From the NCBI GenBank assembly GCA_031276105.1, contig JAISNS010000187.1, positions 1 to 16,763 on the forward strand: 16,763 nt of DNA, read 5' to 3'. The DNA is from Dysgonamonadaceae bacterium. Its GTDB lineage: Bacteria > Bacteroidota > Bacteroidia > Bacteroidales > Azobacteroidaceae. Shown in pieces: positions 1-16,625 of this stretch. The position numbers and the translations under genes were made by a program. Every line of letters starts with the position of its first letter. Positions within the stretch are counted from its first letter, which is position 1. The notes beneath the pieces were generated by a model. It saw only the letters and a program-made list of their open reading frames with translations, ran no database searches and had not been told where the DNA came from.

Positions 1-432
1 TGTCTTTAAGTCCCGTTTACCCCATACAAAGGATACAATTTCTCCACATTCTCTGTCGTATGCATAAATCAAGCACACTTTATTTTTCTTTTCTCCAACA
101 TAAGTCCAAAACTCATCCACTTCCAATGATGCTTAATGATTGCATTTCGGTTTAATTTAATAATACGATTTGACTAATACCGACAATATCTTAACTACAC
201 TAATTCCCTCTATTACAGATATATTTCTAACTCCAATACCGCGAACCATCATCAGTAAAATACGTTTTATTATCGACGAATGACAGCCTTTATAATCTAA
301 TGCATGGTCGCCTGTAAATTGGCGTCCACAATGTTTGCACAAATAAGTCTGCTTTCCCGAGTGTTTTTTGCCATTTTTCTTTACCTTTGTTCTATGACAA
401 TGGGGGCAATAAAGTTCTATCTTTATTTTCAT
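1..432 (-). pseudogene. IS1-family transposase, 5' part, interrupted by two stop codons
   Basis: The first 91 codons (432 down to 160) give an InsA-like N-terminus: a four-cysteine zinc ribbon (CPHC near residue 9, CKHCGRQF near residue 32) followed by a helix-turn-helix-like stretch (GIGVRNISVIEGIS). A TAA follows at 159-157. Reading on in the same frame gives seven codons (IKPKCNH), a second TAA at 135-133, then 44 codons to the window edge that resemble the start of the InsB/DDE domain (LEVDEFWTYVGEKKNK, then YAYDREC and VWGKRDLK). The Asp in EVDEFW is the expected first catalytic Asp. The two halves are in one frame, so this resembles a single-ORF IS1-family element with two nonsense mutations rather than the classic insA/insB -1 frameshift arrangement. 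A TAACTTTG element (444-437) lies just upstream of the ATG and could be its promoter. The 3' end of the element is outside the window, so whether the rest is intact cannot be seen. Confidence 0.85.
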
Positions 433-3533: not shown

Positions 3534-4460
3534 ATGAAGGTAATTGATATTAATGATTTTAGCGAAATACAGAAAGAAACAGCCGGAACTACCGGTTTTT
3601 TCGACGGCGTTCACCGGGGACACCGCTATCTTATTGAACAGTTGAAAGATAAGGCCGCTTTGTTGGGCTTGCCGTCTTCCCTCATTACTTTTTCCAACCA
3701 TCCTAAAAAAATATTGGACAAGAACTTTCAGGTAGCATTACTAAATTCGTTCGACGAAAGAATCGACCGTTTGGCTTCTACCGGAATCGACTATTGCTAC
3801 GTTATCCGCTTTACTCAAGCATTTTCCGAAATCACCGCCGAAGATTTTATCCGGCAAGTGTTGAGAGAACAATTGAAACTCAAGTTTTTATTGATTGGCT
3901 ACGATCATCGATTCGGAAAAGGGCGACGCGATACGTTCGAACATTACCTTACATTCGGCCGGATGTATGGGCTAACCGTCGATAAAGCCGGAAAACTGCC
4001 CGATGATTCCGTTTCTTCCTTTAGTTCAACAACTATCAGGCATTTATTGCAGGAAGGAGAGGTGAAAAAAGCCGCCGGAATGTTAGCTTATAATTACCCG
4101 TTGGTTGGAATTGTAATTGCCGGCGACCGGGTAGGACGAACAATCGGCTTTCCTACGGCCAATATTGAACTTATTGAAAAAGAAAAACTTATACCCAAAG
4201 AGGGCGTCTATGCCGGCTGCGTGAGTCTCGACGGAAAAAAATATGACGGAATGGTTTATATCGGGCGACGCCCCACCTTATCTTTGCAGGGAGAATCACG
4301 GATCGAAGTGCATATCCTTGATTTTAACGAAAATATCTATGGAAAACGAATCTGCGTGGAATTAATTGATTTTCTTCGTCCCGACCGGTTTTTCCACAAC
4401 CTGAACGACTTACAAAAACAATTGGAAAAAGACAAGGAAAGCGTCCGGCATTTAAAGTGA
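3534..4460 (+). CDS. ribF: Bifunctional riboflavin kinase / FMN adenylyltransferase
   Basis: A 308-residue protein, normal length for RibF, which converts riboflavin to FMN and then FAD using ATP in the cytoplasm. The N-terminal FAD-synthetase half shows the nucleotidyl-transferase motif GFFDGVHRGH near residues 22-31 and ITFSNHPKKIL near residue 56, plus SSTTIRHLLQEGEV near residues 163-176. The C-terminal riboflavin kinase half shows GRTIGFPTANIE, PKEGVYAGCV, YIGRRPTL and a C-terminal FLRPDRFF...LQKQLEKD pattern. All main family motifs are present. The ATG at 3534 is right for the family, though the segment before the nucleotide-binding loop (ETAGTTGFF) is a little unusual. It follows the DUF3108 gene closely and faces a small RNA unit on the opposite strand whose terminator touches the ribF stop codon. 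Confidence 0.96.
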   Translation: MKVIDINDFSEIQKETAGTTGFFDGVHRGHRYLIEQLKDKAALLGLPSSLITFSNHPKKILDKNFQVALLNSFDERIDRLASTGIDYCYVIRFTQAFSEITAEDFIRQVLREQLKLKFLLIGYDHRFGKGRRDTFEHYLTFGRMYGLTVDKAGKLPDDSVSSFSSTTIRHLLQEGEVKKAAGMLAYNYPLVGIVIAGDRVGRTIGFPTANIELIEKEKLIPKEGVYAGCVSLDGKKYDGMVYIGRRPTLSLQGESRIEVHILDFNENIYGKRICVELIDFLRPDRFFHNLNDLQKQLEKDKESVRHLK

Positions 4461-4484
4461 AAAAGGGAATTCTCCCGAACTCCC
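4460..4484 (-). terminator. Intrinsic terminator of the putative small RNA
   Basis: On the minus strand GGGAGTT (4484-4478), loop CGGGAG, AATTCCC (4471-4465) form a 7-bp stem with one G-U pair, followed directly by five T (4464-4460). On the plus strand the same hairpin has no T-run after it, so it ends leftward transcripts rather than ribF mRNA. Confidence 0.6.
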
Positions 4485-4533
4485 TAATCCAATCTTTGTT
4501 AACCTTAAATCTAATACTATTATGAAAAAACCA
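4461..4533 (-). ncRNA. Putative small RNA of about 70 nt
   Basis: On the minus strand a near-perfect promoter is followed about 50 bases later by a classic intrinsic terminator, with no open reading frame of note between them. The predicted transcript starts near 4533 and ends in the T-run at 4464-4460. The body is AT-rich (about TTCATAATAGTATTAGATTT). It lies between two converging genes, so it could be antisense to the 3' untranslated region of ribF mRNA or a stand-alone small RNA. I do not recognise an Rfam family. Ends are inferred from promoter and terminator positions only. Confidence 0.5.
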
Positions 4534-4538
4534 CTCTG

Positions 4539-7961: not shown

Positions 7962-8087
7962 CAAATAATTGTAATATGGAAGTTGCAAAATAGGATATTT
8001 TATGTATTATTTTTCAAATCTATGTTTTATCAGGGATTCAGGAGAAGGCTATTCGCTTCCGCCCTAAAAAAAAGATTTAACCGAATA

Positions 8088-8223: not shown

Positions 8224-8309
<86 letters not shown>

Positions 8310-8318
8310 TTTAAATGT

Positions 8319-8328
8319 CGCGCGCGCG
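8319..8328. repeat. (CG)5 run next to the microsatellite
   Basis: Five CG units ten bases after the CA run, in a very AT-rich context. Alternating CG is the strongest Z-DNA former, so the two runs together may act as one structural element. Confidence 0.8.
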
Positions 8329-8419
8329 AAATATAATAATTATCAATTAAATAAACAAACAAACCTATCTCCGTTTTCCTTTCTGTATGTCTTTTTTTTC
8401 AGGGGAAGACGGCCTGTTT

Positions 8420-8443
8420 ATTTACAACTAAGCGGTTGTAAAT
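8420..8443 (+). terminator. AT-rich hairpin followed by T-run (weak terminator or attenuator)
   Basis: ATTTACAAC (8420-8428), loop TAAGCG, GTTGTAAAT (8435-8443) form a perfect 9-bp stem, followed by further T (8444-8446). The stem has few G-C pairs, so it may be a weak terminator, an attenuator or only a structural repeat. It directly abuts the 22-base array. Confidence 0.4.
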
Positions 8444-8552
8444 TTTCATATAGGCGAAAATTTTTTTTTATCAAGACAAAAAAAAATTTTCTCTTAGATC
8501 AAAAAAAATTTTCATCTAAGAGAAAAAAAATTTTCATAAGGACGAAAATAGA
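8443..8552. repeat. Five tandem 22-base units with phased A/T-tracts
   Basis: TTTTC or TTTTT occurs at 8443, 8465, 8487, 8509 and 8531, exactly 22 bases apart. Each is followed by a nine-base variable core (ATATAGGCG, ATCAAGACA, TCTTAGATC, ATCTAAGAG, ATAAGGACG) and then an A-rich tract, eight A in the middle units. The 22-base period is about two helical turns, so the A-tracts lie on one face and the DNA should be strongly curved. The cores differ in sequence while the tracts are constant. Confidence 0.8.
8487..8526. repeat. 13-bp inverted repeat within the 22-base array
   Basis: TTTTCTCTTAGAT (8487-8499) and ATCTAAGAGAAAA (8514-8526) are perfect inverted repeats with a 14-base A/T-rich loop. 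The match reaches into the nine-base cores of the third and fourth units, so it is not only a consequence of the A/T tracts. It lies about 100 bases before the LPP20-like gene. Confidence 0.75.
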
Positions 8553-8627: not shown

Positions 8628-9305
8628 ATGAAACGATTATTAGTATTATTAGTAGTGGTGGGAGCGATGGTTTTGACTTCTGCCGTGGTAGTAAACGCTC
8701 AATCACAGAAAGAGCGACAGGAAGCTTTGAAACAGAGAAAAGACGAATTGAACAAAAAATCGAGCAAGGCGGCCCGAAATGAAGCAAAAAAATTTGTCAA
8801 AGAGGGATGGTTAGTCTCCCCCGGAGCTTTGCCGCTCGACAAGCAGTTGGACCGATCGTATCTGATGCAGTTGGAATGGGACGAATCCGGTCTTTATCCA
8901 AAATACTTTATGAGCGAGGCTATGTCTATCGGTGAAAATTATGACGCCGCTAAACTACAGGCGCTCGAATTAGCCAAGCAAAACCTTGCCGGGCAAATTC
9001 AAACCGAAGTAATCGCGTTGATTGAAAACACAGTTGCCAACAAACAGCTTGCCGCCGAGCAGGCTGCTTCGATTACCGAAAGCGTTATGGCAAGCAAAAA
9101 TTTGATTTCGCAGAGTATAGGCAGAGTAATTCCCGTTGTAGAAGCTTATCGAACAAAAAGCGATAAAAACAAAGAAGTGCTTGTACGCATTGCTTATAAC
9201 TCGCAAGTGGCGATGGAAAAGGCTAAAAAGGCTATCCGTCAGGATTTGGAAGAAAAAGGTAAAGACTTGCACGAACAGTTGGATGCAGTCTTGGGAGTCG
9301 AATAA
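8628..9305 (+). CDS. LPP20-like exported protein, first gene of the six-gene locus
   Basis: A 225-residue protein with a Sec signal peptide (MKRLLVLLVVVGAMVLTSAV, likely cleaved after Ala24). The Gln after the cleavage site and lack of a Cys lipobox mean it is periplasmic rather than lipidated. The mature part has a charged helical stretch (residues 25-60), then a pattern like LPP20 proteins: GENYDAAKLQALELAKQNLA near residue 104, a central Ala-rich helix, and KEVLVRIAYNSQVAMEKAKK near residue 188. Such proteins are small envelope proteins, often found beside DUF4384 and caspase-like genes in Bacteroidota; their role is not established. Its AT-rich leader holds the repeat array, and the next gene begins 10 bases after its stop. 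Confidence 0.7.
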   Translation: MKRLLVLLVVVGAMVLTSAVVVNAQSQKERQEALKQRKDELNKKSSKAARNEAKKFVKEGWLVSPGALPLDKQLDRSYLMQLEWDESGLYPKYFMSEAMSIGENYDAAKLQALELAKQNLAGQIQTEVIALIENTVANKQLAAEQAASITESVMASKNLISQSIGRVIPVVEAYRTKSDKNKEVLVRIAYNSQVAMEKAKKAIRQDLEEKGKDLHEQLDAVLGVE

Positions 9306-9315
9306 TTCCGTTTGA

Positions 9316-10194
9316 ATGATGTGCCGAAAATTAATATACGGACTATTGGCAGGGATAATATTCCCCACTGTGATGTTGGCTCAAAAAACGGTAAACATCT
9401 GTGGGGAATATACCTACAATGCGCCCGAAAACGTAACTCTGGAGCAGGCTAAACAGACGGCTTTGGAACGTGCGAAATTAGAAGCGCTGGCAAATAAATT
9501 CGGAACAAATCTTTCGCAACAGAATACCACATTAATCGAAAATCAAAACGAAAGGTCGAATACTCAATTTCTTGCATTAATGGGTAGTGAAGTGAAAGGC
9601 GAATGGATTGAAGACACTAAACCGCCGGTGTACGATATTACGACCGTGCAAGATATGTTTACAGTTTCGGTTTCGGTATGCGGAAAAGCCCGTGAAATAA
9701 AGGGCGCAGGAATCAATTTCACCGCACAAATCCTGCGAAACGGCACGGAAAGCAAATTCGAAAGCGATGAATTTAAACACAACGATGATTTTTATCTCCT
9801 CTTCAAAACGCCTGTCGAAGGTTATCTTGCCGTTTATTTGATGGACGAAATGCAAACGGTGTTTTGTCTTCTCCCCTATCGCGGCGACGCTTCGGGGAAA
9901 ACGCAGGTGAAAGCCGGAAAAGAATACATTTTTTTCTCCGAAAAACATGCCGACAAAGAAATGACATTTGTGGATGAATATACGCTGACTTGCGAAAAAT
10001 CGTCGGTACAGAATTTTCTTTACATCATCTTTTCGCCTAACGAGTTTACTAAAGCAAGCGATAATCAGTCGGATAACGAACTCGTTCTGCCAAGAGAACT
10101 GCCTTTTGAGGATTTTCAACGCTGGCTGGCGAAAAACAGAACTAAAGATAAAGATATGAAAGTGGAAACGAAAAGTTTAATGATAAAAAAATAA
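9316..10194 (+). CDS. Exported protein with DUF4384-like C-terminal domain
   Basis: A 292-residue protein with a signal peptide ending near MLAQ (residues 19-22). The N-terminal half has an LPP20/FlgT-like segment (LEQAKQTALERAKLEALANK near residue 42), similar in style to the preceding gene product. The C-terminal half resembles DUF4384: DDFYLLFKTPVEGYLAVYLM near residue 156, CLLPYR near 178, KAGKEYIFF, and LPFEDFQRWLAKNR at the end. DUF4384 domains often occur in or next to caspase-like proteins, which fits the two such genes downstream. No catalytic motif is visible. There are two adjacent ATG codons (9316 and 9319); either could be used. The TIR-GTPase gene starts 10 bases after the stop, so the two are probably co-transcribed. 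Confidence 0.7.
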   Translation: MMCRKLIYGLLAGIIFPTVMLAQKTVNICGEYTYNAPENVTLEQAKQTALERAKLEALANKFGTNLSQQNTTLIENQNERSNTQFLALMGSEVKGEWIEDTKPPVYDITTVQDMFTVSVSVCGKAREIKGAGINFTAQILRNGTESKFESDEFKHNDDFYLLFKTPVEGYLAVYLMDEMQTVFCLLPYRGDASGKTQVKAGKEYIFFSEKHADKEMTFVDEYTLTCEKSSVQNFLYIIFSPNEFTKASDNQSDNELVLPRELPFEDFQRWLAKNRTKDKDMKVETKSLMIKK

Positions 10195-10204
10195 AGAAAA
10201 ATTT

Positions 10205-11641
10205 ATGGAAAGTAAAGAATACCAAGTTAAAGGATTTCTGAGTTATTCAACTCAGGATGATGAGTTTTTTAATCGTAAGGATATTACAAGATTGAAGCAA
10301 AACATTGAAAATTACATGCGCCGTTTATCCGGCATTGACATACCTGTTTTCCAATATGCTGAAAATATGAAATATGGACAAATTTTATCGGATGAAATAA
10401 AACGACAAATGCAAGAATCCTCATTTTTTATTCCAATTATTACACCTAATTATTTTATGAGTCAACCATGCAGGGAAGAATTTGAATACTACATGGAATC
10501 TCTGAAATCGACTGAATGTCGTCGGATATTCCCTATATACTTTGCAGATATAGATGATAATGTCGCTGCCTTGGACAATGAAGCTATAAATTTATATAAC
10601 AGGTATCGTGAAACCCAATTATATTACTGCGATTTAAGGAAACTGCAAATTGACGAAACAAATTCGGACTATATAAAAACGATAGAAAGTTTTTCGAAAA
10701 ATATATGTAAATTTTTACACCCATTATTACAAATAATAAAACACGTAAATGAAGAACCTTCCATTTTAATTTGTGGAGCAACAGGCGTCGGCAAGACAAC
10801 CACAGTAAATACGCTTTTTGGGAAAAAGTTAGGGCATGTTGAAGGTGGAAGAAGGGGTACAACTCAATTACATCAACATACGTTGATGTCGGAAGGCGGT
10901 AATGTTATTATTTATGATGTTCCGGGATTGGGTGACAGTAAGGAGATAGACAAACAAACTAAAAAAATTTACAGCGAAATAATAAAGTTGGGAGTTGGAG
11001 GAATAATCGTTGTCATTGTACCTCCGAGACCGGCTGCATTTGGCACTTTAGAAACGGTGAAATTGCTTATAAGCAAAAATGTCGATATCCGTAAAATTGT
11101 TTTCGGATACAATAAATTGAGTTATTTACGCTATGACGACGATGATGGTGAAAATAAAAAAATAGCAGACATTGATTCGCTATTCGGACCGGTTGATGAA
11201 AAAGAAAAGAAAGCTATCGACGATGCAAAAGATATGTTCTTTCAGGATTTGAATGCTTATTTTCCGGACAAAGGTTTTAAAAAAGAACAAATCATTGAAT
11301 ATGATTCTATTTCAGGATGGAATTTTTATAAAATGTTCGAAACCATTGCAAAAGTTATACCTCCAAATGCCGCTATAAAACTGAAAAAAGCTGTCGATAA
11401 GGCACATAATGAGTTAGTAGAGAAACAAGAAAAAAAACGCAAGTCTGTTGAAGAAGACATCACTATAACGGATGAAAAGAAAGAACAGAAGATAATAAAG
11501 ATAAACACAGAAATCCAAAAACTGAATGAAGAACGGGAAACATTCACCAATCTTATCTATGATACGGTGATAGAATTTATTGGTTCTGTAATAGATTTAT
11601 CTGTTAAAAAGATTAAAAATTGGATTAATAAGTGGTTTTAG
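10205..11641 (+). CDS. TIR-domain / GTPase fusion protein, cytoplasmic
   Basis: A 478-residue protein without a signal peptide. Residues about 8-170 resemble a TIR domain: KGFLSYSTQDDEFF at the start, MQESSFFIPIITPNYFMSQP near 69-88, then CREEFEYYME, where Glu91 or Glu92 fits the catalytic Glu of NAD-cleaving TIR domains, and RRIFPIYFADI. Residues about 185-380 are a P-loop GTPase: G1 GATGVGKTT (191-199), a possible G2 Thr in RRGTT, G3 DVPGLGD (238-244), and a degenerate G4 NKLS (303-306) in place of NKxD. Residues about 395-450 are a charged coiled coil, and the last 25 residues are an amphipathic helix (GSVIDLSVKKIKNWINKWF) that may touch membranes. It is clearly AT-rich: hand counts give 15 of 60 G+C at 10381-10440 and 18 of 60 at 11101-11160. 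It is the only cytoplasmic product in the locus. NAD cleavage and GTP binding are inferred from motifs. Confidence 0.85.
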   Translation: MESKEYQVKGFLSYSTQDDEFFNRKDITRLKQNIENYMRRLSGIDIPVFQYAENMKYGQILSDEIKRQMQESSFFIPIITPNYFMSQPCREEFEYYMESLKSTECRRIFPIYFADIDDNVAALDNEAINLYNRYRETQLYYCDLRKLQIDETNSDYIKTIESFSKNICKFLHPLLQIIKHVNEEPSILICGATGVGKTTTVNTLFGKKLGHVEGGRRGTTQLHQHTLMSEGGNVIIYDVPGLGDSKEIDKQTKKIYSEIIKLGVGGIIVVIVPPRPAAFGTLETVKLLISKNVDIRKIVFGYNKLSYLRYDDDDGENKKIADIDSLFGPVDEKEKKAIDDAKDMFFQDLNAYFPDKGFKKEQIIEYDSISGWNFYKMFETIAKVIPPNAAIKLKKAVDKAHNELVEKQEKKRKSVEEDITITDEKKEQKIIKINTEIQKLNEERETFTNLIYDTVIEFIGSVIDLSVKKIKNWINKWF

Positions 11642-11707
11642 GGGTTTTAATAATTAATGTGTGTAAATGAGACAAATATTTTTTAATAACATAAAATAGA
11701 ATATATA

Positions 11708-13222
11708 ATGAAAACAAGTGTATTGAAAATCTTCCTTTTCACCTTTTGTCTATGTATGGGAAGTCCTGCCTTTGCGCAGGAAGACGAAGCCGTCACCGCT
11801 AAATTGGAACAGAAATATGAACATGTATATTTTAGTGAAAATTATTACCGTGTAAGATTAAATGGCAAATGGGGTGTTGTTGACAAGCAAGGCAACGAAA
11901 TTGCTGCACCTAAGTACGATGATGTCGAAATTGTTCAATTTAAAGATTACTATGTCCATGTCAAGGCAAAAGTGAATGACAAATGGGGTGTTATTGATAA
12001 CCAAGGCAACGAAATCATTCCTTATGAATACACTTATATTACTTTTGGCGAAAAAATCATTTTTTTTGCCAAAGGGGGAAATATTGTTTATAAATATGAT
12101 CCTCCAATAGGAGCCAAATGGGGGATATATAATATTGCTCAACGAAAGATAATAGAATGTAAGTATGATTATTTATCTCATTCTTCTGAAGGATTGATTG
12201 CTTTTAATATCGGAGGAACTCTATCTGTGGCTGGAGCTAATTTCGCAAATGTGAAAACAGAGAAAGTTTCCGGCGGCAAGTGGGGATATATTGATTTAAA
12301 CGGCAAAGAAGTTATACCCGCTCAATACGAAACCGCCGACAACTTTAAGGATGGCGTAGCTATGGTGTCGCTTAACGGGCAAACCACGCTTATCGAAAAT
12401 CCTTTAACCGGAGGAAAGGCAAATATCGGGATAAGAGGTGGCTTTACGGCAGATGTGGATATTAATATACCGGTTTCAAGTGTACAAAGCGCCGAAACAT
12501 TTGCTTTTATTTTTGCCAACGAAAGCTACCCAAACTACAGCGTGCCTTTTGCAGGAAACGATGGAAAGATATTCAAAGAATATTGCACCAAGACGCTGGG
12601 TATTCCCGAACATAATATCCGTTTTTACGAAAACGCAACCATTGGAAATATGGTAGCCGCCGTAAACAAAGTGAAAGAAATTGCCGACACTTATGAAGGC
12701 AATGCACAATTTATCATCTACTATTCGGGGCAGGGTATGACCGACGAAAGTAACAAAACACCTTATCTGCTTCCGGTGGACGCCTCTTTGAATAATCTTG
12801 CCGTCACCGGCTATAGTGTAAGCAAACTAAGCGCTGAGTTGAGTCAAATTCCTTCTAAATCGACACTGTTGATTTTGGATGCCTGTTTCAATGGCAGCGA
12901 CCGTGAAGGAAAAACATTGGCTTCTACCCGTAGCGTAGCGATAAAATCCAAACAGGCACAACCCAGCGGCAATCTGATAGTGTTTTCAGCTGCCACCGGC
13001 GACGAAACAGCTTATGTTCACCAAGAGAAAAATCACGGGCTTTTCACTTACTACATTCTCAAAAAATTACAGGAAACCAAAGGAGAAGTCAGTTACAAGG
13101 CGTTGATTGAGTATGTGACATCGGAAGTGAAAAAACAATCGGTCTCCAAACCTCGGATACAGTCGCCCGCTTTAGCAGTATCTACTAAACTACCACATTG
13201 GCAAACTTTAAAAATAAAATAA
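11708..13222 (+). CDS. Exported WG-repeat / caspase-like protein, probably inactive (His to Gln)
   Basis: A 504-residue protein with a signal peptide cleaved after Ala23 (SPAFA/Q). Four WG-type repeats follow (KWGVVDKQGNE, KWGVIDNQGNE, KWGIYNIAQRK, KWGYIDLNGKE, residues about 50-245); such repeats form beta-rich modules thought to bind ligands. Residues about 262-500 are a caspase-like peptidase C14 domain: TFAFIFANESY, YYSGQG, LLILDACFNGSD, FSAATGDETAY and HGLFTYYILKKLQE. The Cys is kept (Cys393), but the position of the catalytic His in the usual GHG motif is Gln342 (CAG at 12731-12733). It is probably a pseudo-protease, perhaps a partner or decoy of the next gene product. The gap of 66 bases before it is the largest in the locus and may hold a promoter. 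The WG part is AT-richer than the caspase part. Confidence 0.88.
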   Translation: MKTSVLKIFLFTFCLCMGSPAFAQEDEAVTAKLEQKYEHVYFSENYYRVRLNGKWGVVDKQGNEIAAPKYDDVEIVQFKDYYVHVKAKVNDKWGVIDNQGNEIIPYEYTYITFGEKIIFFAKGGNIVYKYDPPIGAKWGIYNIAQRKIIECKYDYLSHSSEGLIAFNIGGTLSVAGANFANVKTEKVSGGKWGYIDLNGKEVIPAQYETADNFKDGVAMVSLNGQTTLIENPLTGGKANIGIRGGFTADVDINIPVSSVQSAETFAFIFANESYPNYSVPFAGNDGKIFKEYCTKTLGIPEHNIRFYENATIGNMVAAVNKVKEIADTYEGNAQFIIYYSGQGMTDESNKTPYLLPVDASLNNLAVTGYSVSKLSAELSQIPSKSTLLILDACFNGSDREGKTLASTRSVAIKSKQAQPSGNLIVFSAATGDETAYVHQEKNHGLFTYYILKKLQETKGEVSYKALIEYVTSEVKKQSVSKPRIQSPALAVSTKLPHWQTLKIK

Positions 13223-13223
13223 A

Positions 13224-15005
13224 ATGAAAAAGATTATTGTAGTATTAACATTTGCAATTTTCCCCATTTTTTTATGGGGACAGTCTTATCGGTCAGAACA
13301 AAAAAACGAAAAATATGGATTAGTCGATTCCGACGGTAATGTCGTTGTTCCTTATAATTATTCTTATGTAGGGAAGGATGTAACGGATGGCAGATATGTT
13401 AGAGTATCGCGAGGAGATGAAAAAGATGGAATGTATGATATAAAACTTCAGAAAGAAGTCATTCCTTGTGTTTATGATTATATACATATATCTGGAGAGT
13501 CGGATAAATATGTTCAAGTATCGCGAGGAAAAGGGAAATATGGACTATATGATATAAAACTTCAAAAAGAAGTTGTTCCGTGTGTTTATGATTTTGTGGA
13601 GATAGATATTTTCTGTGAAGACGGATATTTTAAGGTACAACAAGCAAGCGGAAACGATATAAAACACGGACTCTATGATATTCAACTTAAAAAAGAAATC
13701 ATTCCTTGCGTTTATGGTTCTGTAGCGTGCCTAATGTCATTAGAAAACAGATATTTTATTGTAATAGATGGAAACTCTAAAAAATGGGGGCTATATGATG
13801 TTAAGATTAGGAAGGAAATCATTCCTTGTGTTTATGATGTTGTAGGTACAGACTTTGTTATAAATGACAGGTACTTTGCCGTATTTCAAAACGGAAGACA
13901 TGGATTATATGATATTCAACTGAAAAAAGAAGTTGTTCCTTGCAAGTATGATAATGTTTCCAATGCATCCGAAAATTTAATTCTTGTAAAGAGCGGCAGC
14001 AAATGGGGTTACGTGGACATTACTACCGGCAAAGAGATTATTTCTCTGCAATACGACGAAGCGCAACCGTTCGACAAAGGCGTAGCCCGCGTAAAAAAAG
14101 ATGATAAGATTACTCTTATTAACAACCCGTTAAAAGAAGGCAATGTTATTGCAGCGGCGCCGACTTCCAATACAAAAAAAGACCCTAACGCTCCTGCCGT
14201 ATCCCGTTATCCTGCGCCCAACTCCGATGTGGACAAAGACATTCCCACAGTCAAAACCAATGAAAACAGCGCGTTGTTTGCCTTTATCATTGCCAACGAA
14301 AACTACGAATCAGCCCCTGTTCCGTATGCGCTCAACGACGGTCGCATGTTTAAAGAATACTGTCAAAAGACGCTTGGATTGCCCGACAAACACATTCGTA
14401 TGTTCGAGGACGCATCGCTGGGCAATATTATCACTGCCGTCGAACAGTTGAAAAGGATAGCCACAGAATACGACGGCGAAGCGTCGGTGATTTTCTATTA
14501 TGCCGGTCACGGCGTACCCGACGACAAGGGAAACTCCGCCTATCTTCTGCCGGTCGATGGCAGCAGTTCCGACATCACCACCACCGGCTACAGTCTGGCA
14601 AAGCTATACAGCGAACTTGCCAAACTGCCGTTGCGTTCGGTCACCGTATTTTTAGACGCCTGTTTCAGCGGCGCTACACGCGAAAACGAAATCCTTGCTT
14701 CGGCGCGTGGCGTAGCGGTGAAAGTAAAAGACGAAACGCCACAGGGTAATATGGTTGTCTTTTCATCGGCTACCGGCGACGAAACCGCTCATCAGTACGA
14801 AGAAAAAGGACACGGACTGTTCACATACTTTCTGCTGAAAAAACTGCAGGAAACGAAAGGCAACGTCAGCTATGGCGAATTGTCGGACTATGTGACCCGA
14901 CAGGTAAAACGCCACTCGGTAGTCATCAACGACAAACGCCAAACGCCTACCGTGATACCTTCGCCTGCGTTGGCGGATAAATGGCAAACGCTCAAACTGA
15001 AATAG
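13224..15005 (+). CDS. Exported WG-repeat / caspase-like cysteine protease
   Basis: A 593-residue protein with a signal peptide (MKKIIVVLTFAIFPIFLWGQ). About seven WG-like repeats fill residues 25-300; the middle ones are a distinct subtype, GLYDIKLQKEVVPCVYDF and close variants, with a Cys in nearly every copy. The last one (KWGYVDITTGKE) resembles the last repeat of the previous protein. A linker rich in Pro/Asn leads to a caspase-like domain (residues about 350-590) with both catalytic residues: His429 in YYAGHG and Cys480 in FLDACFSGA, plus FSSATGDETAH and HGLFTYFLLKKLQE. It should be an active cysteine endopeptidase, of unknown substrate preference, outside the inner membrane. It starts one base after the stop of its paralogue, so the two are surely co-translated. 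G+C changes sharply within the gene: 20 of 60 at 13501-13560 versus 34 of 60 at 14461-14520. Confidence 0.92.
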   Translation: MKKIIVVLTFAIFPIFLWGQSYRSEQKNEKYGLVDSDGNVVVPYNYSYVGKDVTDGRYVRVSRGDEKDGMYDIKLQKEVIPCVYDYIHISGESDKYVQVSRGKGKYGLYDIKLQKEVVPCVYDFVEIDIFCEDGYFKVQQASGNDIKHGLYDIQLKKEIIPCVYGSVACLMSLENRYFIVIDGNSKKWGLYDVKIRKEIIPCVYDVVGTDFVINDRYFAVFQNGRHGLYDIQLKKEVVPCKYDNVSNASENLILVKSGSKWGYVDITTGKEIISLQYDEAQPFDKGVARVKKDDKITLINNPLKEGNVIAAAPTSNTKKDPNAPAVSRYPAPNSDVDKDIPTVKTNENSALFAFIIANENYESAPVPYALNDGRMFKEYCQKTLGLPDKHIRMFEDASLGNIITAVEQLKRIATEYDGEASVIFYYAGHGVPDDKGNSAYLLPVDGSSSDITTTGYSLAKLYSELAKLPLRSVTVFLDACFSGATRENEILASARGVAVKVKDETPQGNMVVFSSATGDETAHQYEEKGHGLFTYFLLKKLQETKGNVSYGELSDYVTRQVKRHSVVINDKRQTPTVIPSPALADKWQTLKLK

Positions 15006-15009
15006 GGTG

Positions 15010-16455
15010 ATGAAACGACTGTTTACTTTTATTTTTGGTGTTACATTATTGCTGGTTAGCGTTTCGGCGACAGCCCAAGATCGTGATTTGAAAAAGGAAT
15101 ACGAAGAATTTCGGAATCGTGCGAGGAAACAATACAATGATTTCCGCGACCGAGCCAATGCCGAATATGCCGAATTTATGCGCAAAGCATGGGAACGGTA
15201 TCGCGTGTCGCCGGCAATACCCATTCCGCCATCGCCCGACCCTGTCGAGCCTCCGGTCTTCGACCCGAAAACAGAACCGGATAATAAGCCGGTTCCGTAT
15301 GAGGAGATTATTCCGTTACCGCAACCCGTTCCTCCTCCGCAGCCTGTCGCGCCTCTTCCACCTCCGCCGACGCCGGTAAAACAGATGTTTCCTTTTCTGT
15401 TCTATAATACGGAGTGCAAAGTGGGACTGGAATCCGGCTGGAAAATCCGACTGTCCGACCTGTCGGAAGAAAGTATTTCCCGTGCATGGACAATGCTGTC
15501 GGACAGTCGTTACAACAGTGTGATTACGGATTGTCTGAAGTTGCGCCGGACGCTGAATCTCTGCGATTGGGCATATATTCGGTTGGTACGTGAAATGTCG
15601 GAAAAATACTACGAATCATCAACTTCAAACGAAGCTGTGCTGTTTCAAATGTATATCCTTACGCAATCGGGTTATAAGGTTCGTATCGCGAAAACCAACA
15701 GTCGTCTGGTGTTGCTGATCCCTTCACGGAATACGATTTACGAACATTCGTATCTCAATATCGGCGGAGTGAAATATTATTTGGCAGATCAATCGTTGAA
15801 AGATGATACATTTCATATTTTCGATCATGAGTTTCCTAAGGAACAGTTTATTTCGTTACAGTTGGAACAGCCCTCGTTGACCGTTTCCGAAACGTCGGAT
15901 AAAGAATTTGTATCCGAATGTTATCCCGAAATAAAAGTATGTGTCAGGACAAATAAGAACTTGATAGATTTCTTCAATTCATATCCCCGTACGCCGGAGT
16001 GGAATTTATATTCGGAAGCCTCGATAAGCAACACGTTGAAAGACAGTTTATATCCGGTGTTATGCAACGCCGTCGCCGGATGTAGCGAAACAGACGCAGC
16101 TAATCGACTGATAAATTTTGTCCAGACGGCGTTCGACTATCAAACGGACGGCGAACAGTTCGGATATGAACGTCCGCTTTTTGGCGACGAACTTTTCTAC
16201 TATCCGGCAAGCGATTGCGAAGACCGTTCGATTCTTTACTCTATCCTTGTACGCGAACTGTTGGGGCTTGATGTGGTTTTGCTGCATTATCCGGGTCATC
16301 TTGCTACGGCAGTATGCTTCAACGAAGATGTGGAAGGCGATTATTTGATTATCGACGATAAAAAATTTACCGTCTGCGACCCTACGTATATCGGCGCTCC
16401 TGTCGGTAATGCGATGACGGCGTTTAAAGATGTTGAAGTAATAGTGATCAAATAG
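15010..16455 (+). CDS. Exported transglutaminase-like (papain-fold) protein
   Basis: A 481-residue protein with a signal peptide (MKRLFTFIFGVTLLLVSVSA, cleaved before DRDLKK). Residues about 24-65 form a charged helix with the repeated pattern EYEEFRNRARKQYNDFRDRA. A Pro-rich linker follows (residues about 70-125). The rest ends in a transglutaminase-like core: Cys403 in ASDCEDRS, His430 in YPGHLATAV and Asp457 in VCDPTYIG, in the order and spacing of the papain-like Cys-His-Asp triad. Such domains act as transglutaminases, proteases or peptidoglycan/peptide hydrolases, so the reaction cannot be given. I start at the ATG at 15010; a GTG at 15007 is also possible. It follows the active caspase-like gene by 4 bases and ends the co-directional set before a strong hairpin. 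Confidence 0.82.
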   Translation: MKRLFTFIFGVTLLLVSVSATAQDRDLKKEYEEFRNRARKQYNDFRDRANAEYAEFMRKAWERYRVSPAIPIPPSPDPVEPPVFDPKTEPDNKPVPYEEIIPLPQPVPPPQPVAPLPPPPTPVKQMFPFLFYNTECKVGLESGWKIRLSDLSEESISRAWTMLSDSRYNSVITDCLKLRRTLNLCDWAYIRLVREMSEKYYESSTSNEAVLFQMYILTQSGYKVRIAKTNSRLVLLIPSRNTIYEHSYLNIGGVKYYLADQSLKDDTFHIFDHEFPKEQFISLQLEQPSLTVSETSDKEFVSECYPEIKVCVRTNKNLIDFFNSYPRTPEWNLYSEASISNTLKDSLYPVLCNAVAGCSETDAANRLINFVQTAFDYQTDGEQFGYERPLFGDELFYYPASDCEDRSILYSILVRELLGLDVVLLHYPGHLATAVCFNEDVEGDYLIIDDKKFTVCDPTYIGAPVGNAMTAFKDVEVIVIK

Positions 16456-16459
16456 TGAC

Positions 16460-16559
16460 AAGTAAACAAGTAAACGAGTTGACGAGTAAACGAGGGCGCG
16501 AAGCAAGTCTTGTTTACTCGTTTACTTGTTTACTCGTTTACTCGTTTACTTGTTTACTT
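16460..16559. repeat. Long inverted repeat made of octanucleotide units
   Basis: The left side holds AAGTAAAC twice, GAGTTGAC and GAGTAAAC (16460-16491). The right side holds six units of GTTTACTC or GTTTACTT (16512-16559). The left 32 bases pair with 16528-16559 with only two mismatches, giving a very stable hairpin four bases after the stop of the transglutaminase-like gene. It probably ends or protects the transcript of the locus. The octamer units on the two sides differ in number, which suggests copy-number changes. Confidence 0.8.
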
Positions 16560-16625
16560 AAAATTTTAACACTTTTGCCGAAAAAATGAGGCAGCCGGAT
16601 GGCTATCGTTTCGTTAAATAAGATG

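What the first reader, a model, noticed from the sequence alone, without database searches (positions are those of the whole stretch)
8628..16455. Six-gene locus joining a TIR-GTPase with two WG-repeat caspase-like proteins and a transglutaminase-like protein
Seen: six co-directional genes with gaps of 10, 10, 66, 1 and 4 bases, flanked by a repeat-rich leader and a strong 3' hairpin. Known: bacterial TIR domains and caspase-like proteases are used in immune and cell-death systems, and DUF4384 often accompanies caspase-like proteins. Inference: the locus may be a signalling or defence system in which TIR-GTPase sensing is tied to proteolysis and transpeptidase-like chemistry. Against a simple defence model, five of the six products carry signal peptides, so the proteases would act outside the cytoplasm; envelope stress, development or inter-bacterial conflict are equally open.
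Basis: partly seen in the sequence, partly recalled or inferred. Interest (0 to 1): 0.8.

Follow-up and report, generated by a model that had tools for sequence, protein, structure and literature searches.

The report
Exported caspase operon with dead twin
This gut-bacterium locus is one copy of a widespread set of exported proteins built around a caspase-like protease that sits next to an inactive sister protease, and it carries, as a rare extra, a cell-interior protein of a kind seen in bacterial immunity.

Summary
The six co-directional genes are real, but the unit is not 'TIR-GTPase plus proteases'. The core is an exported Bacteroidales module: g1 (unknown), g2 (DUF4384), caspase, g6 (transglutaminase-like). 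Of 80 contigs found through g1 (the best 80 of 164), 69 have g2 nearby, 60 a caspase and 44 g6; 1 has the TIR-GTPase. In 393 order genomes only the window's own has it. It is a rare accessory, seen twice, both times right after g2.

Two findings go further. (1) g4 is a pseudocaspase: catalytic His is Gln. Its 17 nearest listed relatives share this. Degenerate sequences form one clade. In 4 of 5 loci with DNA it lies directly upstream of an intact WG-caspase. (2) The variable genes are a shared repertoire: 40 of 69 recur across loci, against 2.9 on average for flanking genes. Cytosolic ones include SIR2, AbiGi, DUF2971 and HEPN-like proteins.

Best reading: an envelope caspase with an inactive regulatory partner and exchangeable cytosolic partners. 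Defence is plausible, unproven: raw PADLOC hits were not enriched over flanks, and only 9 of 60 caspase loci carry such a gene.

The parts
8226..8550 (.). repeat-rich leader: (AC)41.5 array 8226-8308 and 22/44-base A/T-rich array 8440-8550
   Evidence: a promoter-like match at 8310-8337 + is only a consensus match
8628..9305 (+). g1: exported 225-aa protein of unknown fold, first gene of the core module; some orthologues carry a lipobox-like site (10 of 76 by a crude scan)
   Evidence: no Pfam family above threshold, no PDB relative
9316..10194 (+). g2: exported protein with a C-terminal DUF4384 domain
   Evidence: 25 bits, cut-off 27; next to g1 in the relatives; 1434 relatives at E<=1e-3
10205..11641 (+). 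g3: TIR domain plus AIG1/GIMAP-type GTPase, no export signal; rare accessory gene
   Evidence: P-loop GATGVGKTTT and DVPGLGD kept in the only full-length relative
11708..13222 (+). g4: exported WG-repeat pseudocaspase, catalytic His replaced by Gln, Cys kept
13224..15005 (+). g5: exported WG-repeat caspase with intact His/Cys dyad (YYAGHG, LDACFSG)
15007..16455 (+). g6: exported transglutaminase-like protein, Cys404/His431/Asp458 kept
16460..16560 (+). 3' hairpin made of an 8-base repeat; a dispersed element of this genome, perhaps also a terminator

Best explanation
The locus is one version of a combinatorial envelope module of Bacteroidales. Shown by sequence: g1, g2, a caspase and g6 are kept together in many genomes and nearly all carry export-type N-termini; the caspases' N-terminal repeats and several extra genes vary from locus to locus. 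Inferred: the variable exported parts (WG, WD40, LRR, TPR/CARDB, Sel1, outer-membrane barrels) act as sensors or substrates in the envelope, g1 and g2 form a constant scaffold, the caspase is the proteolytic switch, and g6 processes or crosslinks envelope proteins. In this version the WG-caspase pair holds one dead member (g4) and one intact member (g5); I infer that g4 binds and controls g5, or competes for its substrates, as an inactive paralogue does in other protease pairs (cFLIP with caspase-8 is the comparison, recalled). The TIR-GTPase is a cytosolic add-on that in other copies is replaced by SIR2 plus an ATPase-like protein, AbiGi, a DUF2971 protein or a HEPN-like protein; I infer that it is an NAD-consuming or membrane-acting effector fired on envelope attack. 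How a signal would cross the inner membrane is not known.
For: Linkage: 69 of 80 loci have g2, 60 of 80 a caspase, 44 of 80 g6, 37 of 80 all three with g1. In genomes drawn from the order, by hand count over the tables, 18 of 43 g1 places have a listed caspase on the same strand within about 6 kb, 16 of 21 if g1 is at least 38% identical; the caspase list was cut, so this is a lower bound. Of 18 such regions fetched, 4 repeat earlier loci; of the other 14, 13 show g2 and 9 a caspase in the stretch displayed. Export. Pseudocaspase: 18 of 18 top proteins (g4 and 17 relatives at 64-90% identity) have Gln for His, and 15 of 18 keep Cys; of the other 102 listed, 101 are His/Cys and 1 is Gln/Cys. 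In 73 caspase domains of the window and the 80 loci, 68 are His/Cys and 5 are not; 4 of these 5 lie directly upstream of an intact WG-caspase with gaps of 1, -25, -4 and -4 bases. 22 degenerate rows form one clade, support 99/90; 23 rows with the divergent L130 added, 87/93. The intact partners of eight pairs fall in one 12-row clade, 99/97. Caspase domains of pseudocaspases are less alike than their partners in 28 of 28 comparisons, 69% against 83% on average, while the WG parts are equal at 51%. Shared repertoire: 40 of 69 variable genes against 2.9 (sd 2.3, largest 13) in 1000 samples of flanking genes. Cytosolic accessories recur in pairs of loci at 37-59% identity.
Against: No expression, binding or activity data. 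Structure prediction never ran, so the folds of g1, g2 and g6 are untested. Raw PADLOC matches are not rarer in flanking genes (up to about 8 of 69 variable genes; among 121 controls families such as mad3 in 3, mad8 in 3 and mad2 in 2, with only 25 of 47 families shown). Only 9 of 60 loci with g2 and a caspase carry one of the recognised cytosolic accessories; none was found in the 14 further loci by BLAST with the same representatives. Pfam describes AbiGi as an antitoxin, not an effector. The HEPN-like and DUF2971 Pfam matches are under their cut-offs. The window's locus sits beside housekeeping genes, and no plasmid, phage or viral-contig relative was found. One pseudocaspase (L113) has no intact caspase in its gene run, and tandem pairs with two intact dyads exist (L108, L137), so pairing with a dead member is not a rule of the module. 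20 of 80 loci show no caspase nearby, 12 of them with at least 8 kb of downstream sequence.
Confidence: 0.4

Rival explanations
1. A house-keeping or niche-specific envelope system: an exported protease-transglutaminase assembly that matures surface proteins or handles envelope stress. The cytosolic accessories are unrelated genes that landed in the operon.
For: Most copies have only exported parts; neighbours are metabolic genes; no viral or plasmid copies; no PADLOC enrichment over flanks.
Against: The distribution is patchy: g1 in 38 of 393 order genomes at E<=1e-10 and 15 of 97 relatives at E<=1e-3. Five cytosolic families recur inside the module in pairs of loci and never in the 486 flanking control genes; TIR-GTPase recurs twice.
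Confidence: 0.33
2. A phage-defence (abortive infection) locus, with TIR-GTPase as sensor and proteases as executioners.
For: TIR and AIG1-type GTPases occur with caspases in conflict systems (PMC7159879, passages and two sections read); accessories of SIR2, AbiGi and PDC families in sister loci.
Against: TIR-GTPase is in 1 of 80 sister loci and 1 of 393 genomes; proteases are exported; one is catalytically degenerate.
Confidence: 0.15
3. An interbacterial or host-directed weapon: the exported proteases act on other cells, and the dead copy and g1/g2 give self-protection.
For: Export-type N-termini; variable repeat domains would fit varied targets.
Against: No secretion-system gene or toxin domain found in the six genes; N-termini look like ordinary Sec signals; nothing shows release from the cell.
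Confidence: 0.1

Closest known systems
EACC1-caspase two-gene membrane-associated conflict system (System 4, Kaur et al. 2020, PMC7159879, section read)
   Same: A constant caspase coupled to many alternative domains and a membrane-linked partner.
   Different: There the caspase is N-terminal and the alternatives are fused to its C-terminus, and the partner is the EACC1 membrane helix; here the caspase is C-terminal, exported, and the partners are g1/g2. g4 and g5 score 62.8 and 72.8 bits against a cut-off of 140 for the NCBIfam EACC1-type caspase.
vWA-MoxR ternary systems with inactive and active caspases (Kaur et al. 2020, PMC7159879, sections and passages read)
   Same: About 70% of caspases in the vWA effector position are inactive, and when a caspase is there a second caspase nearly always accompanies it in the VMAP component; TIR and AIG-type GTPases also occur.
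   Different: Those are NTP-dependent systems built on MoxR, vWA and VMAP proteins, none of which is in this window.
Bacterial pseudo-orthocaspases (Klemencic et al. 2019, PMC6426788, two sections and passages read)
   Same: Caspase p20 domain with a substituted dyad; a Gln-Cys form is common in Rhizobiales and its proteins also hold DUF4384, as g2 does here.
   Different: Those QC proteins also hold a trypsin domain and are alphaproteobacterial; the paper counts only 10 pseudo-forms of 1078 in Bacteroidetes, and the parts I read describe no tandem pair with an intact caspase.
cFLIP and caspase-8 (recalled)
   Same: Catalytically dead caspase beside a live one.
   Different: Eukaryotic, cytosolic and joined by death-effector domains; homology of regulation is not claimed.
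AIG1/GIMAP GTPases and LeoA
   Same: g3 passes the AIG1 cut-off (31.1 against 27 bits) and resembles GIMAP4 (E 8e-4) and LeoA (E 2.4e-8).
   Different: Fused to an N-terminal TIR domain; only one other full-length protein of this kind was found (with capped candidates).

Membership tests
Caspase family C14 (g5) | Caspase domain with His and Cys of the catalytic dyad | tested here: met
   Peptidase_C14 82.1 bits, cut-off 21.4; YYAGHG and LDACFSG
Caspase family C14 as active protease (g4) | Catalytic His and Cys | tested here: not met
   Domain present at 62.9 bits but His is Gln; Cys kept
Pseudo-orthocaspase (definition in PMC6426788) | Caspase domain with one or both dyad residues substituted | tested here: met
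   g4: Gln-Cys; loss of activity itself not testable here
EACC1-associated caspase system | Caspase matching the EACC1-type model and a neighbouring EACC1 gene | tested here: not met
   62.8 and 72.8 bits against 140; no EACC1 match in the other four products
vWA-MoxR ternary conflict system | MoxR ATPase, vWA and VMAP or iSTAND components | tested here: not met
   No such domain in the six products at E<=0.1
Thoeris | ThsB-type TIR with a ThsA partner | tested here: not met
   ThsB only at 12.6 bits, E 0.022; no ThsA match
AIG1/GIMAP GTPase | AIG1 domain above curated cut-off | tested here: met
   31.1 bits against 27
TIR NADase | TIR domain with catalytic Glu and NAD hydrolysis | tested here: inconclusive
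   TIR_2 42.8 bits; a SxPCRxEFE/SxPCRxELE stretch is kept in the one relative, that this holds the catalytic Glu is recalled; activity not testable
Transglutaminase-like superfamily (g6) | Domain match and Cys-His-Asp triad | tested here: inconclusive
   Transglut_core 13.6 bits, cut-off 23; Cys404, His431 and Asp458 kept; fold not tested because structure prediction never ran
DUF4384 (g2) | Pfam match above cut-off | tested here: inconclusive
   25 bits against 27; several close relatives carry PF14326 in precomputed annotation

The most novel reading that the evidence does not exclude
Bacteroidales run an envelope apoptosome-like switch: an exported caspase held by a dedicated, long-lived pseudocaspase, wired to exchangeable cytosolic killers (TIR-GTPase here; SIR2, AbiGi, DUF2971 or HEPN-like proteins elsewhere). 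One bold wiring not excluded: the caspase is kept harmless by export, and when infection or damage stops secretion it stays inside the cell and fires the cytosolic partner, so that export itself is the guarded process.
Probability: 0.12. Interest if true: 0.9.

Novelty: new variant of a known kind. Interest (0 to 1): 0.6.

Why it matters
Bacterial caspases in conflict systems are described mainly as cytosolic or membrane-linked parts of NTP-driven switches (PMC7159879). An exported caspase module with a conserved dead twin and a shared pool of exchangeable parts would move that chemistry into the envelope of common gut bacteria. It also gives a testable prokaryotic case of a pseudoprotease that has stayed beside its live paralogue: the pair is present in a cultured strain, Palleniella intestinalis PINT (L087).

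Tried and rejected
TIR-GTPase as the defining gene: rejected. Hairpin as a locus boundary: rejected. Mobile element, phage or plasmid origin: g1 gave no match in plasmids and no confirmed relative in viral contigs, g3 none in phages; other genes were not tried there. PADLOC enrichment of the variable genes over flanking genes: tried and not shown. First scan of genome contigs with g3 found nothing. Profile searches of the PDB with g1, g2 and g6 gave no relative of note, and g5 none. mis-scored L118 (it is intact) and L130 (it is Gln/Gly) because a wrong segment was aligned; correct this. One search used wrong coordinates and one search printed nothing. Which of the 69 variable genes matches AbiEi was not traced. 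Of the 35 proteins scanned one matches LPP20 (E 3e-4); which one is not known.

Literature: searches showed no paper on this gene set or on WG-repeat caspases; the library lacks most subscription papers and all preprints, so absence from print is not claimed.
Full report
What is there. I call them g1 to g6. Pfam gives DUF4384 (just under its cut-off) for g2, TIR_2 with an AIG1-type GTPase for g3, WG repeats with a C-terminal caspase domain for g4 and g5, and a sub-threshold transglutaminase match for g6; g1 has nothing. g6 keeps Cys, His and Asp at conserved columns in an alignment of 14 relatives. All but g3 begin like exported proteins (crude scan). Upstream are dinucleotide and A/T-rich arrays. 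The 3' hairpin is strong but belongs to a dispersed repeat with 75 matches in the genome. The other side of the locus is a run of metabolic genes on the - strand (names from recall).

What belongs together. I looked at relatives in three samples. In 97 related genomes g1 is in 15, g6 in 24 and the full TIR-GTPase in 2, the window's and one other (the other four matches cover only part of the GTPase or a similar short stretch). A scan of named genome contigs with an alignment of g1 found 164 relatives and returned the best 80. Within 4 kb upstream and 10 kb downstream on the same strand, 69 of 80 have g2, 60 a caspase, 44 g6, and 1 the TIR-GTPase; 37 have g2, caspase and g6. Of 58 loci with at least 8 kb downstream, 50 have g2, 46 a caspase, 37 g6 and 0 the TIR-GTPase. 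In 393 genomes drawn from the order, g1 is in 38 (E<=1e-10), a caspase like that of g4 in 78 (E<=1e-30) and the TIR-GTPase in 1. By hand count 18 of 43 g1 places have a listed caspase within about 6 kb on the same strand, 16 of 21 where g1 is at least 38% identical. So the core module is g1, g2, caspase, g6. It is patchy and reaches many Bacteroidales, including cultured strains such as Palleniella intestinalis, Leyella stercorea, Phocaeicola plebeius and Odoribacter lunatus (record titles). The window's own genome has a second, diverged copy with WD40 and TPR-CARDB-caspase proteins.

The TIR-GTPase. It follows g2 both here and in the other genome that has it (L002/L082, from a different genus of the same family), with 49% identity over 490 aligned columns. 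That contig ends after the gene, so its caspase is unseen. In a search of 5.8 billion proteins only these two carried TIR and GTPase together among 12 hits, but the candidates were capped at 7998.

The dead twin. g4 has Gln where caspases have the catalytic His. In the database search with the caspase part of g4, the 18 best proteins (g4 and 17 relatives, 64-90% identical) all have Gln; Cys is kept in 15, Ser in 2 and Gly in 1. Among the other 102 of the 120 listed (6067 in all), 101 have His and Cys and 1 has Gln and Cys. A sequencing error or recent decay cannot give this. With the two catalytic columns left out, 22 degenerate rows (two identical) form one clade in an 85-row tree, support 99/90, in 98% of 200 bootstrap trees; the bootstrap had not fully settled. 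Adding the divergent Gln/Gly protein of L130 keeps one clade of 23 at lower support, 87/93, in 84% of bootstrap trees. Among 73 caspase domains of the window and the 80 loci, 5 lack the dyad: the window, L084, L087, L113, L130. In four of them the degenerate copy lies directly before an intact WG-caspase (gaps 1, -25, -4, -4); L113 has none in its gene run. Six further pairs are inferred only from equal longest-contig lengths and were not seen as DNA. Over these six with the window and L084, the degenerate caspase domains are less alike than the intact ones in 28 of 28 comparisons (69% against 83%; not independent), while the WG parts are equal. The intact partners of these eight pairs fall into one 12-row clade, 99/97. 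So one old paralogue lost its His, kept Gln in most lines, evolves faster in that domain, and stayed beside its live sister. Pairs with two intact caspases exist too (L108, L137).

The exchangeable parts. Genes lying between g2 and the last caspase or g6 gene, 69 of at least 100 residues, recur across loci: 40 of 69 have a homologue (E<1e-10, under 90% identical) in another locus's module, against 2.9 (sd 2.3, largest 13) in 1000 equal samples from 486 flanking genes. By Pfam they include Sel1 repeats (7 members), WD40-type propellers (4), outer-membrane barrels (4), LRR_5 (2) and CHASE2 (2). Caspase N-termini vary likewise: WG, WD40, TPR with CARDB, CARDB, LRR_5. Cytosolic-looking ones are SIR2_2 with an ATPase-like neighbour (L115, L130), AbiGi (L129, L158), a PADLOC candidate family PDC-S32 (L089, L092), a weakly HEPN-like protein (L099, L141) and a DUF2971/PDC-S31 protein (L108). 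Their positions differ: right after g2, between caspases, or right before g6, often with overlapping ends. Pairs are 37-59% identical, so they are not recent copies, and none has a homologue among the 486 flanking genes. The TIR-GTPase fits this list.

Against over-reading this: raw PADLOC matches are not rarer among 121 flanking control genes than among the 69 variable genes; only 9 of 60 loci with g2 and a caspase carry a recognised cytosolic accessory; 14 further loci showed none by BLAST with the same representatives; Pfam calls AbiGi an antitoxin; several matches are sub-threshold. The pattern that convinces is recurrence inside the module, not a defence label.

How it may work. Shown: gene linkage, export-type N-termini, loss of the dyad in g4, repertoire sharing. 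Inferred: variable exported repeats sense or present targets; g1 and g2 are the constant scaffold; the live caspase is the switch; the dead one regulates it; g6 processes envelope proteins; the cytosolic accessory executes. The link across the inner membrane is the weak point. In this window no product has an obvious membrane anchor besides the export signals, and I did not run a membrane-helix predictor.

Compared with what is known. Inactive caspases accompanying active ones, and TIR or AIG-type GTPases near caspases, are described in NTP-dependent conflict systems (PMC7159879; passages and sections 12 and 33 read). Pseudo-orthocaspases, among them Gln-Cys forms in proteins with DUF4384, are described in Rhizobiales, with only 10 of 1078 in Bacteroidetes (PMC6426788; passages and sections 12 and 13 read). 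PMC8195603 was seen in passages only. The locus fails the tests for the EACC1-caspase system, the vWA-MoxR systems and Thoeris. I therefore file it as a new variant of caspase-centred conflict-type modules, with function open.

Noticed in passing
window 4456-4534, - strand: Rfam match to BTncRNA_FopS (57.2 bits, gathering 56), a family of Bacteroidetes small RNAs.
   Followed up: no
window 157-432, - strand: Short ORF that looks like the N-terminal part of an IS1-type transposase protein (recognised from recall).
   Followed up: no
G000:C78 (L078): Second, diverged copy of the module in the same genome: g2-like, g6-like, WD40 and TPR-CARDB-caspase proteins.
   Followed up: partly
window 16460-16560 and 75 matches across the genome: Dispersed hairpin-forming octamer repeat (GTTTACTC/GTTTACTT) of unknown role.
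   Followed up: partly
L149 (JAMPDC010000001.1): Record titled Staphylococcus sp. MAG carries a Bacteroidales-type module on a 2.6 Mb contig; probably a mislabelled record.
   Followed up: no
L111, L131, L135, L138: g1 homologues without g2 or caspase, followed by a recurrent set of genes of about 308, 400-450, 445-473, 471-476 and 342-346 residues (L131 with four of them): possibly a second module type built on g1.
   Followed up: no
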